Shown here: piece after piece, positions 13,549 to 24,873 of the stretch | Layout: each line of letters begins with the position of its first letter | Position numbering within the stretch: position 1 is the first letter of the stretch | Source of the DNA: Saccharofermentans sp. | GTDB lineage: Bacteria; Bacillota_A; Clostridia; Saccharofermentanales; Saccharofermentanaceae | Assembly: GCA_024692105.1 (NCBI GenBank) | Contig: JAILMZ010000035.1 | Coordinates: forward strand, 1-30,496 | Reading direction: 5' to 3' | Length of the DNA stretch: 30,496 nucleotides | Notes under the pieces: generated by a model | The model's database searches: none | Seen by the model: only the letters and a program-made list of their open reading frames with translations | What the model was told of the DNA's origin: nothing | Translations under genes and position numbers: made by a program

Positions 13549-14751
13549 TTAATTAAGTTCCGCGAGGATGTCTGGGAAAACCTCCAGGCTTCTCTTTAAA
13601 ATGCCGTGCATATGGGCGATTGCCGTGCCGTAGTTGGTCATCGGGATGCCTGCGTCCTCTGCGCATTTCGCGCGGTACATGACCTCGCGGTCGTTAAGCA
13701 TGCACGCGCCGCAGTGGATGATCATCTTGTATTCCGACAGATCCTCTGCGAAAGACAGTCCGGATGTGGTGTCTATCTTTACGGTCGCGCCCGTGTACTC
13801 GCCGAGCCACTTGGGGAGCTTATATGTTCCGATGTCCTCGCACTGTCTGTGATGTGTGCAGCCTTCTGATATGAGGACCTTGTCTCCGTCTTCTATCGTG
13901 TCGATTGCTTTGACGCCTTTTACCGCACTTTTCAGGAACCCCTTGTGCCTTGCCATGAGGATCGAGAAAGACGTGAGAAGGATATCTTCGGGAACGATCT
14001 TCGATACCTTGCCGAAAGCCTGGCTGTCAGTCACGACAAGCTTCGGCTTTGTCTTAAGATTGGCGATGACCGCACCAAGTTCTTCAGGCTGCGCGATGTA
14101 TGCCGCGGCATTGCTGTCCAGGATTTCTCTTAAGACCTGCTGCTGCGGAAGGATGATCCTTCCCTTGGGTGCGGAAGTGTCTATCGGGATAACGAGTATG
14201 ACCGTGTCACCTGCAGAGATAAGATCGCTGATGAGAGGCGCAGCTTCCTGCTTGTGTCCCCCAAGCCTTCCGATCATCTCCTTGAGCTCGTCGATATTCT
14301 TTCCGGTCAGGGAACTTACATAGATCTCATTGTCCTTTACCGCGGGGATGGTCTCTTTAAGGTCTGCTTTGTTGTAGCAGATGATGTACGGGATGAGTTT
14401 CTCTTCGAAAAGGTTTATAAGCTGTTCTTCGGTCCTGCCCATGCCTTCCACGAGGTCGACCACGAGCACTGCCACATCGACGCGGTTAAGGATCAGTCTC
14501 GTCTTCGAGATCCTCTTCTCTCCCAACTCACCCTCGTCATCAAAACCGGGAGTGTCGATTATCACGACAGGTCCCAAAGGCAGAAGTTCCATCGCCTTCG
14601 TGACCGGGTCTGTCGTCGTGCCTTTGGTGTCGGATACCACGGCAAGATCCTGGTTCGTGACCTTGTTCACAAGACTCGATTTGCCTGCGTTCCTTCTTCC
14701 GAAAAATCCGATGTGGATCCTCTCTCCTGACGGCGTATCGTTAAGACTCAT
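13549..14751 (-). CDS. hydF: [FeFe] hydrogenase maturation GTPase HydF
   Basis: HydF holds the precursor of the [2Fe] subcluster of the H-cluster and delivers it to apo-HydA. The N-terminal GTPase has G1 GRRNAGKSS at 18-26, the TT switch at 45-47, G3 DTPG at 66-69 and G4 NKAD at 127-130. A dimerisation region follows, and the C-terminal cluster domain carries Cys298-x-His300 and Cys347-x-x-Cys350, the known [4Fe-4S] ligands. At 400 residues it is of normal length. The start overlaps the end of the second NifK-like gene by 11 bases, so it is the last gene of the nif-like/hyp operon. Neither HydE nor HydG, the usual partners, is in the window. Confidence 0.96.
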   Translation of the reverse strand: MSLNDTPSGERIHIGFFGRRNAGKSSLVNKVTNQDLAVVSDTKGTTTDPVTKAMELLPLGPVVIIDTPGFDDEGELGEKRISKTRLILNRVDVAVLVVDLVEGMGRTEEQLINLFEEKLIPYIICYNKADLKETIPAVKDNEIYVSSLTGKNIDELKEMIGRLGGHKQEAAPLISDLISAGDTVILVIPIDTSAPKGRIILPQQQVLREILDSNAAAYIAQPEELGAVIANLKTKPKLVVTDSQAFGKVSKIVPEDILLTSFSILMARHKGFLKSAVKGVKAIDTIEDGDKVLISEGCTHHRQCEDIGTYKLPKWLGEYTGATVKIDTTSGLSFAEDLSEYKMIIHCGACMLNDREVMYRAKCAEDAGIPMTNYGTAIAHMHGILKRSLEVFPDILAELN

Positions 14752-15790
14752 GGTAGTACTCCTCCGGTTTCATAAGATCTGGTATCTGCTTCAGATATAA
14801 TCTTCCTGACATTGCAAAATGGGGCAGTTCGATGAACTTCGCGATCTTGGGCGAGACGAGTTTGAACAGAGGATCTGCGACGATGACTTCGGCATCAGAA
14901 AGGGCGTTCCTTATCTCTTCTTCGCCGTGACATCTGATGTCGTTCTCACCCAGAAGTCCGTCCGTTATCTCGGTCGTCGCGACGACGTTAAAGTCTGCTC
15001 CGAAACTCCTCTTAAGCTGCGCAGCAACATAGCCTGATGTTACCGTTTCGCCCACGACATAGCACTTCGACTTCTCTCTTTTTACACCGGCATAATCGCC
15101 GAGAAGTCTGTACGGAATATCGAACTCTTCTTTCATGTATTTTGCTGCTGCAAGTCCTGCCGAAGACACGACGATATTCACGTCAGCACTTGTTGCATTT
15201 ACTGCCTCTTCGAAAGACGTTCCGTACGACCAGTTGGACACGATATCATACTCATCAGAGAACTCGAAAACAGTCGACGCATGATCGAGCGGAGTCGCAC
15301 CTATAATGTTCGCGCCGGGCTTGTTTCCGTTATGCTTGGGAAGCGGTTTTAAGAACTTCCTTGCGAATGCAAGATAAGCTTCCGATGCACCGGCGGAATA
15401 ATCGTGCATCGCATTGGTCTGAACATAGAAACAGGGCAGTCCGGTCTTCTGTTCAAGTATCCTGCATATTCCCTTGAAATCCGTTCCGTTAAGATACGGC
15501 AGAGGCGAGTTTGCAAGCGCGATGAACTTGGGCTTCATCTCGCCTGCAGCGTATACAATGTTGCTTATCAGTTTATCGTCGTTTCCGGTTATCGCATCGA
15601 TGTCATTAAGGCCTGAGATGTAGATGAGACTTTCCTTGTCGTACCATCTGATCTCATCGTGCGTATTGTATGTCGAATTGCAGCCTGACGGATCGTGTAT
15701 CACGCACATGCCGCCGAGCTCATAGAGAGCCGAAGCAAAGCCCGACACATCACCTGTATATACCGGAAGTATCCTATACGTCTTCTTCAT
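14741..15790 (-). CDS. Nitrogenase component 1-like protein, NifK/BchB type, second copy
   Basis: The sequence follows the nitrogenase-component-1 pattern at its N-terminus: ALYELGGMCVIHDPSGC with Cys29 and Cys37, where the second matches the P-cluster-type Gly-Cys of NifK, then GLNDIDAITG and later IIGATPLDHAS. It is clearly paralogous to the protein at 21876-22814, sharing LGG, the GC position, DAI-G, IGATPL and a C-terminal HFAMSGR. At 349 residues it is much shorter than NifK (about 510). I start it at the ATG at 15790, which overlaps the upstream stop as ATGA; the longer frame begins with a GTG. It probably pairs with the NifD-like protein just upstream, as a scaffold or a reductase. Substrate unknown. 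Confidence 0.8.
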   Translation of the reverse strand: MKKTYRILPVYTGDVSGFASALYELGGMCVIHDPSGCNSTYNTHDEIRWYDKESLIYISGLNDIDAITGNDDKLISNIVYAAGEMKPKFIALANSPLPYLNGTDFKGICRILEQKTGLPCFYVQTNAMHDYSAGASEAYLAFARKFLKPLPKHNGNKPGANIIGATPLDHASTVFEFSDEYDIVSNWSYGTSFEEAVNATSADVNIVVSSAGLAAAKYMKEEFDIPYRLLGDYAGVKREKSKCYVVGETVTSGYVAAQLKRSFGADFNVVATTEITDGLLGENDIRCHGEEEIRNALSDAEVIVADPLFKLVSPKIAKFIELPHFAMSGRLYLKQIPDLMKPEEYYHES

Positions 15791-24121: not shown

Positions 24122-24873
24122 TTCGATTCCTCGCTGAGCAATTTCTGTGCAAGCTTAATGAATTCCTGTGCAGCCTCCGACTCGGGCGCGCCTTCGACGC
24201 AGGTCTTGCCTATGTCTTCGCATCTTGTTATGTCGTCACTTCTGGGGATCCTTGCGATGATGTCGATGCCCTTCTCTTCGGCAAAGGCCTCAACCTTTTC
24301 TTCTTCACCGACGACATTCCTCTTGTTCAGGATGATGCCGCCAACATGCGCATATCCTCTGTCCTCGAAATTCTTTACCGCCATGCAGATGTTGTTTGCA
24401 GCATACAGCGCCATCTTCTCGCCGGAAGTAACGATGAGGACCTGCTCTGCGTAACCTTCTCTGATGGGAGCTGCGAAACCTCCGCAGACAACGTCTCCCA
24501 GGACATCGTAGAGCACGACATCCGGCTTGTATGTTTCGAATAATCCCAATTCATCGAGAAGATTGAAAGTCGCGATGATGCCTCTTCCCGCACAACCGAG
24601 ACCCGGTGTGGGGCCGCCCGTCTCGATGCAGAGGATGTCTCCGTAGCCTTTCTTGGAGATCTCTTCGACAGAGGTCGGTTCGCCGCCCTCCCTGAGGATC
24701 TCGATAACGGGCTTCAAGGGAACACCGCCTAAGAGATTGATCGTAGAATCAGCCTTAGGGTCGCATCCGATCTGGATGACCTTCTTACCCAGGCTTGCAA
24801 ACGCTGCCGACAGATTGGAAGTCATGGTGGACTTCCCGATTCCGCCTTTACCGTATATCGCGATCTTAAGCAT
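24118..24873 (-). CDS. NifH/BchL/CfbC-like reductase, ATP-dependent iron-sulfur protein
   Basis: This 251-residue protein is the ATP-driven electron donor of a nitrogenase-like system. It has a P-loop YGKGGIGKST (7-16), switch CDPKADST (37-44), and the two cysteines that bridge a [4Fe-4S] cluster between two subunits: Cys94 in GLGCAGRG and Cys130 in DVVCGGFAAPIR. It is closer in outline to true NifH/CfbC than to ParA ATPases. I choose the ATG at 24873, about 8 bases after a GGAG, over the longer frame. It is first in the operon and there is only one copy for two DK-like pairs, so it may serve both. No NifB, NifE or NifN of usual length is nearby. Confidence 0.92.
   Translation of the reverse strand: MLKIAIYGKGGIGKSTMTSNLSAAFASLGKKVIQIGCDPKADSTINLLGGVPLKPVIEILREGGEPTSVEEISKKGYGDILCIETGGPTPGLGCAGRGIIATFNLLDELGLFETYKPDVVLYDVLGDVVCGGFAAPIREGYAEQVLIVTSGEKMALYAANNICMAVKNFEDRGYAHVGGIILNKRNVVGEEEKVEAFAEEKGIDIIARIPRSDDITRCEDIGKTCVEGAPESEAAQEFIKLAQKLLSEESK

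What the first reader, a model, noticed from the sequence alone, without database searches (positions are those of the whole stretch)
13549..24873. One operon combining NifHDK-like, HypFCDE, TM1266, second NifDK-like pair and HydF
Eleven genes are chained by overlaps: GTGA (NifH-like to NifD-like), ATGA (several), TAATG (NifK-like to hypF), and 17-bp and 11-bp overlaps. Seen in the sequence: three machineries that normally belong to different metalloenzymes are co-expressed. Known: HypCDEF make Fe(CN)2CO, HydF carries the diiron H-cluster precursor, and NifH/DK-like proteins do ATP-driven reduction or cluster scaffolding. Inference: a new assembly, modification or repair pathway for an iron cofactor with CN/CO ligands, in which a NifDK-like complex receives or reduces a Hyp-made fragment and HydF hands it on. 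I know of no described system with this content.
Basis: partly seen in the sequence, partly recalled or inferred. Interest (0 to 1): 0.95.

Follow-up and report, generated by a model that had tools for sequence, protein, structure and literature searches.

The report
HydG-free hydrogenase cofactor assembly operon
Many gut and rumen bacteria that lack HydG, the enzyme known to make the carbon monoxide and cyanide ligands of [FeFe]-hydrogenase, carry an operon of Hyp proteins (otherwise used for [NiFe]-hydrogenase) and two nitrogenase-like complexes, which likely makes those ligands by a different route.

Summary
In detail: 11 tightly packed genes (NifH-D1-K1-like, HypFCDE, TM1266, NifD2-K2-like, HydF), with an [FeFe]-hydrogenase upstream on the same strand. 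It is no one-strain accident: 57 of 58 related loci with enough upstream DNA hold the NifH-D1-K1-HypFCDE genes before NifD2. The new point is genomic. In 41 genomes with the NifD2 locus, HydA is present in 41, HydE in 40, HydF in 40, but HydG in only 1. In 298 Lachnospiraceae genomes, 24 of the 36 with HydE but no HydG have the full system, against 0 of 131 with HydE and HydG. The operon's Hyp set is mostly not for [NiFe]-hydrogenase: all 36 HypD genomes without NifD1 have a [NiFe]-type match, but only 4 of 24 with NifD1 do, and each of those has a second HypD. In several genomes HydE and HydF lie inside the operon. Best reading: the operon replaces HydG. A 2012 survey noted the gene neighbourhood and a 2022 survey noted HydG missing; no paper listed in ten searches visibly joins them. 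The chemistry is inferred.

The parts
24118..24873 (-). NifH-like ATP-dependent iron protein (longest ORF to 24918)
   Evidence: PF00142 4e-91; below every NifH/CfbC/BchL/BchX equivalog cut-off; P-loop and both [4Fe-4S] Cys motifs present
22811..24121 (-). NifD1: nitrogenase component-1 alpha-like subunit tied to the Hyp genes
21876..22814 (-). NifK1: short component-1 beta-like subunit (312 aa)
   Evidence: PF00148 2e-7; invariant Cys37 and Cys42 in 14 members
19597..21876 (-). HypF carbamoyltransferase
   Evidence: TIGR00143 755 bits, cut-off 466; start taken at the TAATG junction
19382..19600 (-). HypC
   Evidence: PF01455 7e-21; N-terminal MKMC
18336..19385 (-). HypD
   Evidence: TIGR00075 360 bits, cut-off 193; GPGCPVC motif; operon HypDs form one clade apart from [NiFe]-type HypDs
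17335..18372 (-). HypE with the C-terminal PRIC cyanation motif
   Evidence: TIGR02124 414 bits, cut-off 252; ends ...LLPRIC
17069..17317 (-). TM1266-family iron-only hydrogenase system putative regulator
   Evidence: TIGR03959 101 bits, cut-off 60.8
15787..17085 (-). NifD2: second alpha-like subunit, with a conserved C-terminal Cys tail
14741..15805 (-). NifK2: second beta-like subunit
   Evidence: PF00148 2e-22; invariant Cys42 in 13 members
13549..14751 (-). HydF, H-cluster scaffold GTPase
   Evidence: TIGR03918 542 bits, cut-off 326; GTPase and CxH...CxxC motifs
27050..28825 (-). HydA, group A6 NADH-dependent [FeFe]-hydrogenase: predicted target
   Evidence: NF040763 826 bits, cut-off 765
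28840..30447 (-). HydB, NuoF-like partner of HydA
   Evidence: PF01512 7e-43; TIGR01959 496 bits, below its 559 cut-off

Best explanation
This operon is likely a HydG-independent maturation pathway for [FeFe]-hydrogenase, in which HypCDEF and two nitrogenase-like complexes would make the mononuclear iron-CO/CN unit that HydG makes in other bacteria. Shown: the gene content, its conservation, the absence of HydG with HydE, HydF and HydA retained, and the absence of a [NiFe]-hydrogenase for the Hyp set in most carriers tested. Inferred: HypF and HypE make cyanide from carbamoyl phosphate, and HypC and HypD hold the iron that receives it. NifH with NifD1K1, found in the 298-genome sample only together with this Hyp set, drives an ATP-dependent reduction that supplies CO ligand or converts the Hyp-made Fe(CN)2CO unit. 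NifH with NifD2K2 then works on the resulting iron complex and hands it to HydE, which makes the diiron product for HydF and HydA. HydE shows no residue that separates HydG-less from HydG-bearing genomes, so the product is probably the same as HydG's synthon or close to it.
For: 41 genomes, picked by me from the 80 loci by title and contig length before any HydG result; 40 of the 41 show NifD1 and HypD in the fetched locus. HydG over cut-off in 1 of 41, and that one (G023, L042) is the locus whose contig is cut just upstream of NifD2; HydE 40 of 41, [FeFe] HydA family 41 of 41, HydF 40 of 41, [NiFe] large-subunit family 5 of 41, of which only 2 are matched over most of the family's length. Sample of 298 Lachnospiraceae (tables): strong NifD1 in 24 genomes, and all 24 have NifD2, HypD and HydE and none has HydG. 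Of HydE+HydG- genomes 24 of 36 have the full system, of HydE+HydG+ genomes 0 of 131 (Fisher 2e-20, not corrected for kinship). Allowing for kinship on a HydE tree of 99 rows: 8 independent pairs on well-supported branches; HydG and the NifD2 system go opposite ways in 5.7 and the same way in 0.06 on average, median p 0.03, range 0.016-0.375. Hyp control: a [NiFe]-type match in 36 of 36 HypD genomes without NifD1 and 4 of 24 with it; those 4 have a second HypD beside it; HypB in 34 of 36 against 6 of 24. Operon HypD is its own clade, 76 rows against 20. Linkage: HydE and HydF lie inside or beside the operon in L150, L152, L164, L169, L170 and L268, HydE alone in L265. The best HydG-like proteins of C. 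carboxidivorans and E. ramulus are ThiH. Catalytic motifs kept: HypE PRIC in 57 of 72 models, HypC N-terminal Cys in 66 of 69, HydF cluster motif in 38 of 39. HydE residues do not separate the classes.
Against: No biochemistry. G023 (L042, Oliverpabstia intestinalis) has the NifD2 locus and HydG. G033 (L062, Blautia MSJ-9) has the operon but neither HydE nor HydF over cut-off and a single HydA-family match of 156 bits. Six HydE+HydG- Lachnospiraceae have no NifD2 (G111, G160, G190, G209, G310, G314); they may be incomplete assemblies, but this was not shown. Seven strong NifD2 genomes lack NifD1 and HypD and have an ABC importer instead, and two of them have HydG, so NifD2 alone does not mean HydG loss. 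HypB is present in 6 of 24 full-system genomes, two of them (G021, G241) without any [NiFe] match, and in 5 of 12 other carriers tested. The tool printed no completeness values. Known Hyp chemistry gives two CN and one CO per iron, while HydG's synthon has one CN and two CO, so an extra conversion must be assumed. No genome is held for the window itself; the nearest relative G001 (L001) was tested instead.
Confidence: 0.75

Rival explanations
1. The Hyp proteins alone supply iron-bound CN and CO for the H-cluster, and the nitrogenase-like complexes do a different job, such as reducing and freeing iron from a chelate to feed assembly.
For: Relatives of NifHDK2 sit with FecCD-type importers and Peripla_BP_2 binding proteins, typical of siderophore or metal-chelate uptake, in all 7 NifD2-without-HypD genomes and, as weaker relatives, in G168 and G088, which lack HydE.
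Against: In the 298-genome sample strong NifD1 occurs only with HypD (24 of 24), its partner NifK1 abuts HypF, and all 24 carriers lack HydG. No such importer was found in the Hyp-type loci L263, L264 and L268 that were scanned for it; the first 80 loci were not scanned for it.
Confidence: 0.13
2. Another radical SAM enzyme, divergent from HydG, makes the ligands, and the operon makes a separate iron-CN/CO cofactor.
For: The 2022 acetogen survey proposed a HydG-like protein with atypical motifs in C. carboxidivorans and relatives (PMC9431212, passages).
Against: The best HydG-model match in C. carboxidivorans and E. ramulus is ThiH, over its own cut-off. In 14 of 14 genomes G001-G014 the only HydG-model match is HydE itself. 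I did not see the survey's supplementary table, so its candidate may be another protein.
Confidence: 0.07
3. An ordinary [NiFe]-hydrogenase Hyp set that happens to lie beside unrelated nitrogenase-like genes.
For: Five of 41 carriers have some PF00374 match; C. carboxidivorans and C. muellerianum have one over most of the family's length.
Against: 36 of 41 carriers have none; 20 of 24 in the second sample have none; C. carboxidivorans and 4 Lachnospiraceae have a separate HypD of the other clade beside their [NiFe]-type genes; gene order is conserved in 55 of 58 loci.
Confidence: 0.02

Closest known systems
HydEFG [FeFe]-hydrogenase maturation
   Same: HydE, HydF and HydA are present in nearly all carriers tested, TM1266 is usual, and in several carriers HydE and HydF are inside or beside the operon.
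   Different: HydG, the tyrosine lyase that makes the Fe(CO)2CN synthon (PMC12752695 passages), is under cut-off in 40 of 41 carriers.
HypABCDEF [NiFe]-hydrogenase maturation
   Same: HypC, D, E and F with their catalytic motifs.
   Different: No [NiFe]-hydrogenase match in most carriers, HypB in only 6 of 24, a separate HypD clade, linkage to HydE and HydF.
NifHEN-like 'red clade' of Dos Santos et al. 2012 (PMC3464626; section 11 and passages read)
   Same: Two linked NifHEN-like copies in gut Firmicutes beside hydrogenase maturation proteins; two P-cluster-site Cys in the alpha-like and one in the beta-like subunit.
   Different: That paper does not mention HydG, HydE or HydF and does not connect the genes to a missing enzyme.
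NifEN, DPOR (BchLNB), CfbCD, MarHDK
   Same: Component-1 fold with an Fe-protein partner; NifE is the best-scoring NCBIfam family for NifD1, NifK1 and NifK2.
   Different: Below the cut-off of every NCBIfam nitrogenase-like family listed; linked to Hyp and Hyd genes.

Membership tests
HydEFG H-cluster maturation | HydG present | tested here: not met
   1 of 41 carriers over cut-off; 0 of 24 full-system Lachnospiraceae. The window's own genome is not held
HydEFG H-cluster maturation | HydE and HydF present with an [FeFe]-hydrogenase | tested here: met
   40, 40 and 41 of 41; HydF and HydA in the window itself
Hyp [NiFe] maturation | HypC, D, E, F with cyanation motifs | tested here: met
   Family cut-offs; PRIC, MC and GPGCPVC motifs
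Hyp [NiFe] maturation | A [NiFe]-hydrogenase large subunit to mature | tested here: not met
   No match in 36 of 41 and 20 of 24
Hyp [NiFe] maturation | HypB for nickel insertion | tested here: not met
   18 of 24 full-system Lachnospiraceae have none over cut-off, 6 have one; 5 of 12 other carriers have one
Nitrogenase (NifHDK) | Reaches the curated family cut-offs; conserved cofactor Cys ligand | tested here: not met
   NifD1 31 bits against 486, NifH 319 against 394; the only invariant Cys of NifD1 are 70, 71, 131 and 134
Nitrogenase-like component-1 fold with Fe protein | Component-1 fold; P-cluster-site Cys; Fe protein with P-loop and two cluster Cys | tested here: met
Nitrogenase-like component-1 with Fe protein | Bound [4Fe-4S] cluster and ATP-driven electron transfer | not testable with these tools
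   Needs purified protein
DPOR / CfbCD | Fe protein reaches the family's curated cut-off | tested here: not met
   CfbC 311.5 against 402, BchL 216 against 345, BchX 211.5 against 331
MarHDK methylthio-alkane reductase | Reaches a Mar-specific family cut-off | not tested
   No Mar-specific model appeared; only fold matches to Mar chains were seen

The most novel reading that the evidence does not exclude
A third route to an organometallic hydrogenase cofactor: two nitrogenase-like enzymes act directly on an iron-CN/CO unit, NifD1K1 making CO ligand (for example from CO2) or trimming Fe(CN)2CO on the Hyp scaffold, and NifD2K2 preparing the unit for HydE. In related genomes without Hyp, the same NifD2K2 works on an iron complex taken up through a dedicated FecCD-type importer, so a cofactor precursor can be scavenged from other microbes.
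Probability: 0.3. Interest if true: 0.97.

Novelty: new variant of a known kind. Interest (0 to 1): 0.92.

Why it matters
H-cluster assembly is described as one pathway, with all five CO and CN ligands coming from tyrosine (PMC3105041 abstract), cleaved by HydG (PMC12752695 passages). If these bacteria build it with carbamoyl-phosphate cyanide and nitrogenase-like reductases, it is a second solution to a hard piece of biological organometallic chemistry. It would also give a function to a large nitrogenase-like clade of the human and animal gut. It offers an explanation for the missing HydG reported in acetogens of industrial interest (PMC9431212 passages), shown here for C. carboxidivorans, and predicts which genes must be moved with HydA to make it in another host. 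Isolates that carry it exist (Eubacterium ramulus, Coprococcus, Blautia, Clostridium carboxidivorans), so it can be tested now.

Tried and rejected
My first hypothesis, that the operon replaces both HydE and HydG, was rejected: HydE is in 40 of 41 carriers. Chance neighbourhood: rejected. Divergent HydG: ThiH in the two carriers scanned, no match besides HydE in 14 of 14 genomes G001-G014. Ordinary [NiFe] Hyp set: rejected. HydE active-site change as a sign of a different substrate: the largest column difference between classes is about 0.5 and none is fixed (38 NifD2-bearing rows, importer-type ones included, against 51 HydG rows), so no sign of it. The six HydE+HydG-NifD2- genomes: five HydE neighbourhoods read show no Nif genes; unexplained; G310 was not read. 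Rows left out of counts: 11 weak NifD2 matches (E 1e-49 to 1e-84) and 3 weak NifD1 matches (G044, G088, G283) were not counted as strong; G077's HydG fragment (262 bits) was not counted as HydG. Rfam: no family in the window at gathering score. The first HydE tree held one mis-read row, L205, and gave 6 supported pairs with median p 0.125; I dropped that row and rebuilt (8 pairs, median p 0.03). The HypD tree carries long-branch warnings. PMC9147875 (passages) reports a heliobacterium with hydA but no hydEFG; no link to this operon was seen there.
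Full report
What is there. The window holds an eleven-gene minus-strand operon at 24873-13549: NifH-like, NifD1-like, NifK1-like, HypF, HypC, HypD, HypE, TM1266, NifD2-like, NifK2-like, HydF. Junctions overlap or nearly touch. Upstream on the same strand are HydB and HydA; HydA is a group A6 NADH-dependent [FeFe]-hydrogenase. A plus-strand acyltransferase gene lies between the two units. No Rfam family reached its gathering score in the window, and no whole genome is held for it.

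Conservation. Homologues number 2501 for NifD1 and 2162 for NifD2 at E <= 1e-3 (candidate-capped). A scan of genome contigs found 415 NifD2 relatives, of which the best 80 were kept: Saccharofermentans and kin, many Lachnospiraceae (Blautia, Coprococcus, Eubacterium, Anaerobutyricum), Coriobacteriaceae, Clostridium carboxidivorans and C. muellerianum. Of 58 loci with at least 9.5 kb upstream of NifD2, 57 have NifH, NifD1, NifK1, HypF, HypC, HypD and HypE upstream on the same strand; 55 of 58 are in the window's order; 28 of 58 have a NifH directly before NifD2. HydF follows within 3.5 kb in 38 of 70 loci with enough downstream DNA.

HydG is missing. I took 41 genomes out of the 80 loci by title and contig length, before seeing any HydG result; 40 of the 41 show NifD1 and HypD in the fetched locus. 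HydG over cut-off: 1 of 41, and that genome's locus, L042, is cut just upstream of NifD2, so its Hyp half was not seen. HydE: 40 of 41. [FeFe] HydA family: 41 of 41. HydF: 40 of 41. [NiFe] large-subunit family: 5 of 41, of which 2 are matched over most of the family's length and 3 only over the first 70 positions. The remaining HydG-model matches are below cut-off; the two strongest that I scanned are ThiH, and in 14 of 14 genomes G001-G014 the only match is HydE itself. Some carriers lie on one near-genome-size contig (C. carboxidivorans P7, 5.73 Mb chromosome; L038, 3.51 Mb; L044, 3.30 Mb), so the absence is not only a gap in assembly.

Controls in one family. In 298 Lachnospiraceae genomes (at least 90% completeness asked for; the tool printed no values), HydG is over cut-off in 132, HydE in 167, HypD in 60, NifD2 in 42 at E <= 1e-40, of which 31 strong, NifD1 in 27 at E <= 1e-60, of which 24 strong. 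All 24 strong NifD1 genomes have NifD2, HypD and HydE; none has HydG. HydE+HydG-: 36 genomes = 24 full system, 5 NifD2 without Hyp, 1 weak NifD2-like, 6 with none. HydE+HydG+: 131 genomes = 0 full, 2 NifD2 without Hyp, 2 weak, 127 none. The Fisher value of 2e-20 ignores kinship. On a HydE tree of 99 rows (38 NifD2-bearing HydG-less rows: 27 of the 30 Lachnospiraceae ones, the weak G078 among them, and 11 other carriers; 51 of the 131 HydG-bearing genomes; 10 others) the HydG label needs at least 8 changes on well-supported branches, and 8 independent pairs go opposite ways in 5.7 and the same way in 0.06 on average (median p 0.03, range 0.016-0.375).

Hyp is mostly for something other than [NiFe]. 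Of the 60 HypD genomes, 36 lack NifD1 and all 36 have a [NiFe]-type match (34 only by its first 70 positions, in proteins mostly of about 360 residues, as in Ech-like forms; that reading is from memory). Of the 24 with NifD1, 4 have one, and exactly these 4 carry a second HypD within about 2 kb of it. All 14 HydE+HydG+ genomes that have HypD have a [NiFe]-type match. HypB is in 34 of 36 against 6 of 24, and in 5 of 12 other carriers. HypD of the operon (76 rows) is one clade apart from 20 [NiFe]-type HypDs, the four second copies and the [NiFe]-linked HypD of C. carboxidivorans among them (long-branch warnings). The operon Hyp proteins keep their catalytic motifs; the 15 of 72 HypE models without PRIC include frames that my ORF picker cut short.

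Physical linkage to H-cluster assembly. L152, L169 (Eubacterium uniforme) and L268 hold the whole set plus HydF and HydE in one stretch, in genomes without HydG. HydF and HydE also follow NifK2 in L150 and L170; in L164 they lie between NifD1 and NifK1; in L265 HydE follows HypE (HydG absence).

A Hyp-less relative. Seven strong NifD2 genomes lack strong NifD1 and HypD. In all seven, NifH-NifD2-NifK2 sits with a FecCD-type permease, its ATPase and a Peripla_BP_2 binding protein; 6 of 7 have TM1266 nearby, 5 of 7 HydF, 2 of 7 HydE. Two of the seven have HydG. G168 and G088, which lack HydE, have weaker NifD-like relatives with the same kind of importer. So NifD2K2 may share a substrate kind with an uptake system, and the Hyp-NifD1K1 half may be a way to make it inside the cell. 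This is inference.

How it would work. In the standard route HydG makes a mononuclear Fe(CN)(CO)2 synthon from tyrosine, HydE turns it into a diiron product, and HydF carries it (PMC12752695 passages). HydE in the HydG-less genomes shows no fixed difference from HydE beside HydG, so it probably receives the same or a near-identical unit. HypCDEF make Fe(CN)2CO for [NiFe]-hydrogenases (PMC9431212 passage). The missing conversion, more CO and less CN per iron, is the natural job for ATP-driven reductases; which complex does which part is not known.

Prior print. Dos Santos et al. 2012 (section 11 and passages read) noted the two NifHEN-like copies and their link to hydrogenase maturation genes. 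The 2022 acetogen survey (passages read) found HydG missing in five of eight Clostridium species including C. carboxidivorans, gave no straightforward explanation, and noted doubled HypCDE in C. carboxidivorans. Ten paper searches listed no paper whose title or abstract start ties these together; several showed only the top of longer lists, and the library lacks most subscription journals and preprints.

Verdict. A real, widespread and coherent system, most likely a replacement for HydG in H-cluster assembly. The replacement is a genomic inference with strong controls; the chemistry is open.

Noticed in passing
L153, L180, L251-L255: NifH-NifD2-NifK2 with a FecCD-type ABC importer in place of Hyp and NifD1K1, often with TM1266 and HydF, twice with HydE.
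   Followed up: partly
L261 (G168), L262 (G088): More distant NifHDK-like genes with the same kind of importer in Lachnospiraceae without HydE; possibly a metal-chelate or cofactor uptake and reduction system.
   Followed up: no
L062 (Blautia MSJ-9, G033): Carries the operon but has no HydE, HydF or HydG match over cut-off and a single HydA-family match of 156 bits in a 578-aa frame.
   Followed up: no
window 27050-28825: HydA's P1 motif reads TSCSPGW rather than the TSCCPGW recalled from textbooks; P2 (MPCTAK) and P3 (EIMGCPGGC) are present.
   Followed up: no
window 25000-26576: A plus-strand acyltransferase gene lies between HydA and the operon, perhaps an insertion that split one hydrogenase-maturation unit.
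   Followed up: no
window 1727-6731: ClpC-like ATPase, ATP:guanido phosphotransferase (McsB-like), a small protein and CtsR: an ordinary heat-shock operon next door.
   Followed up: no
G111, G160, G190, G209, G310, G314: HydE without HydG and without NifD2: incomplete assemblies or yet another route.
   Followed up: partly
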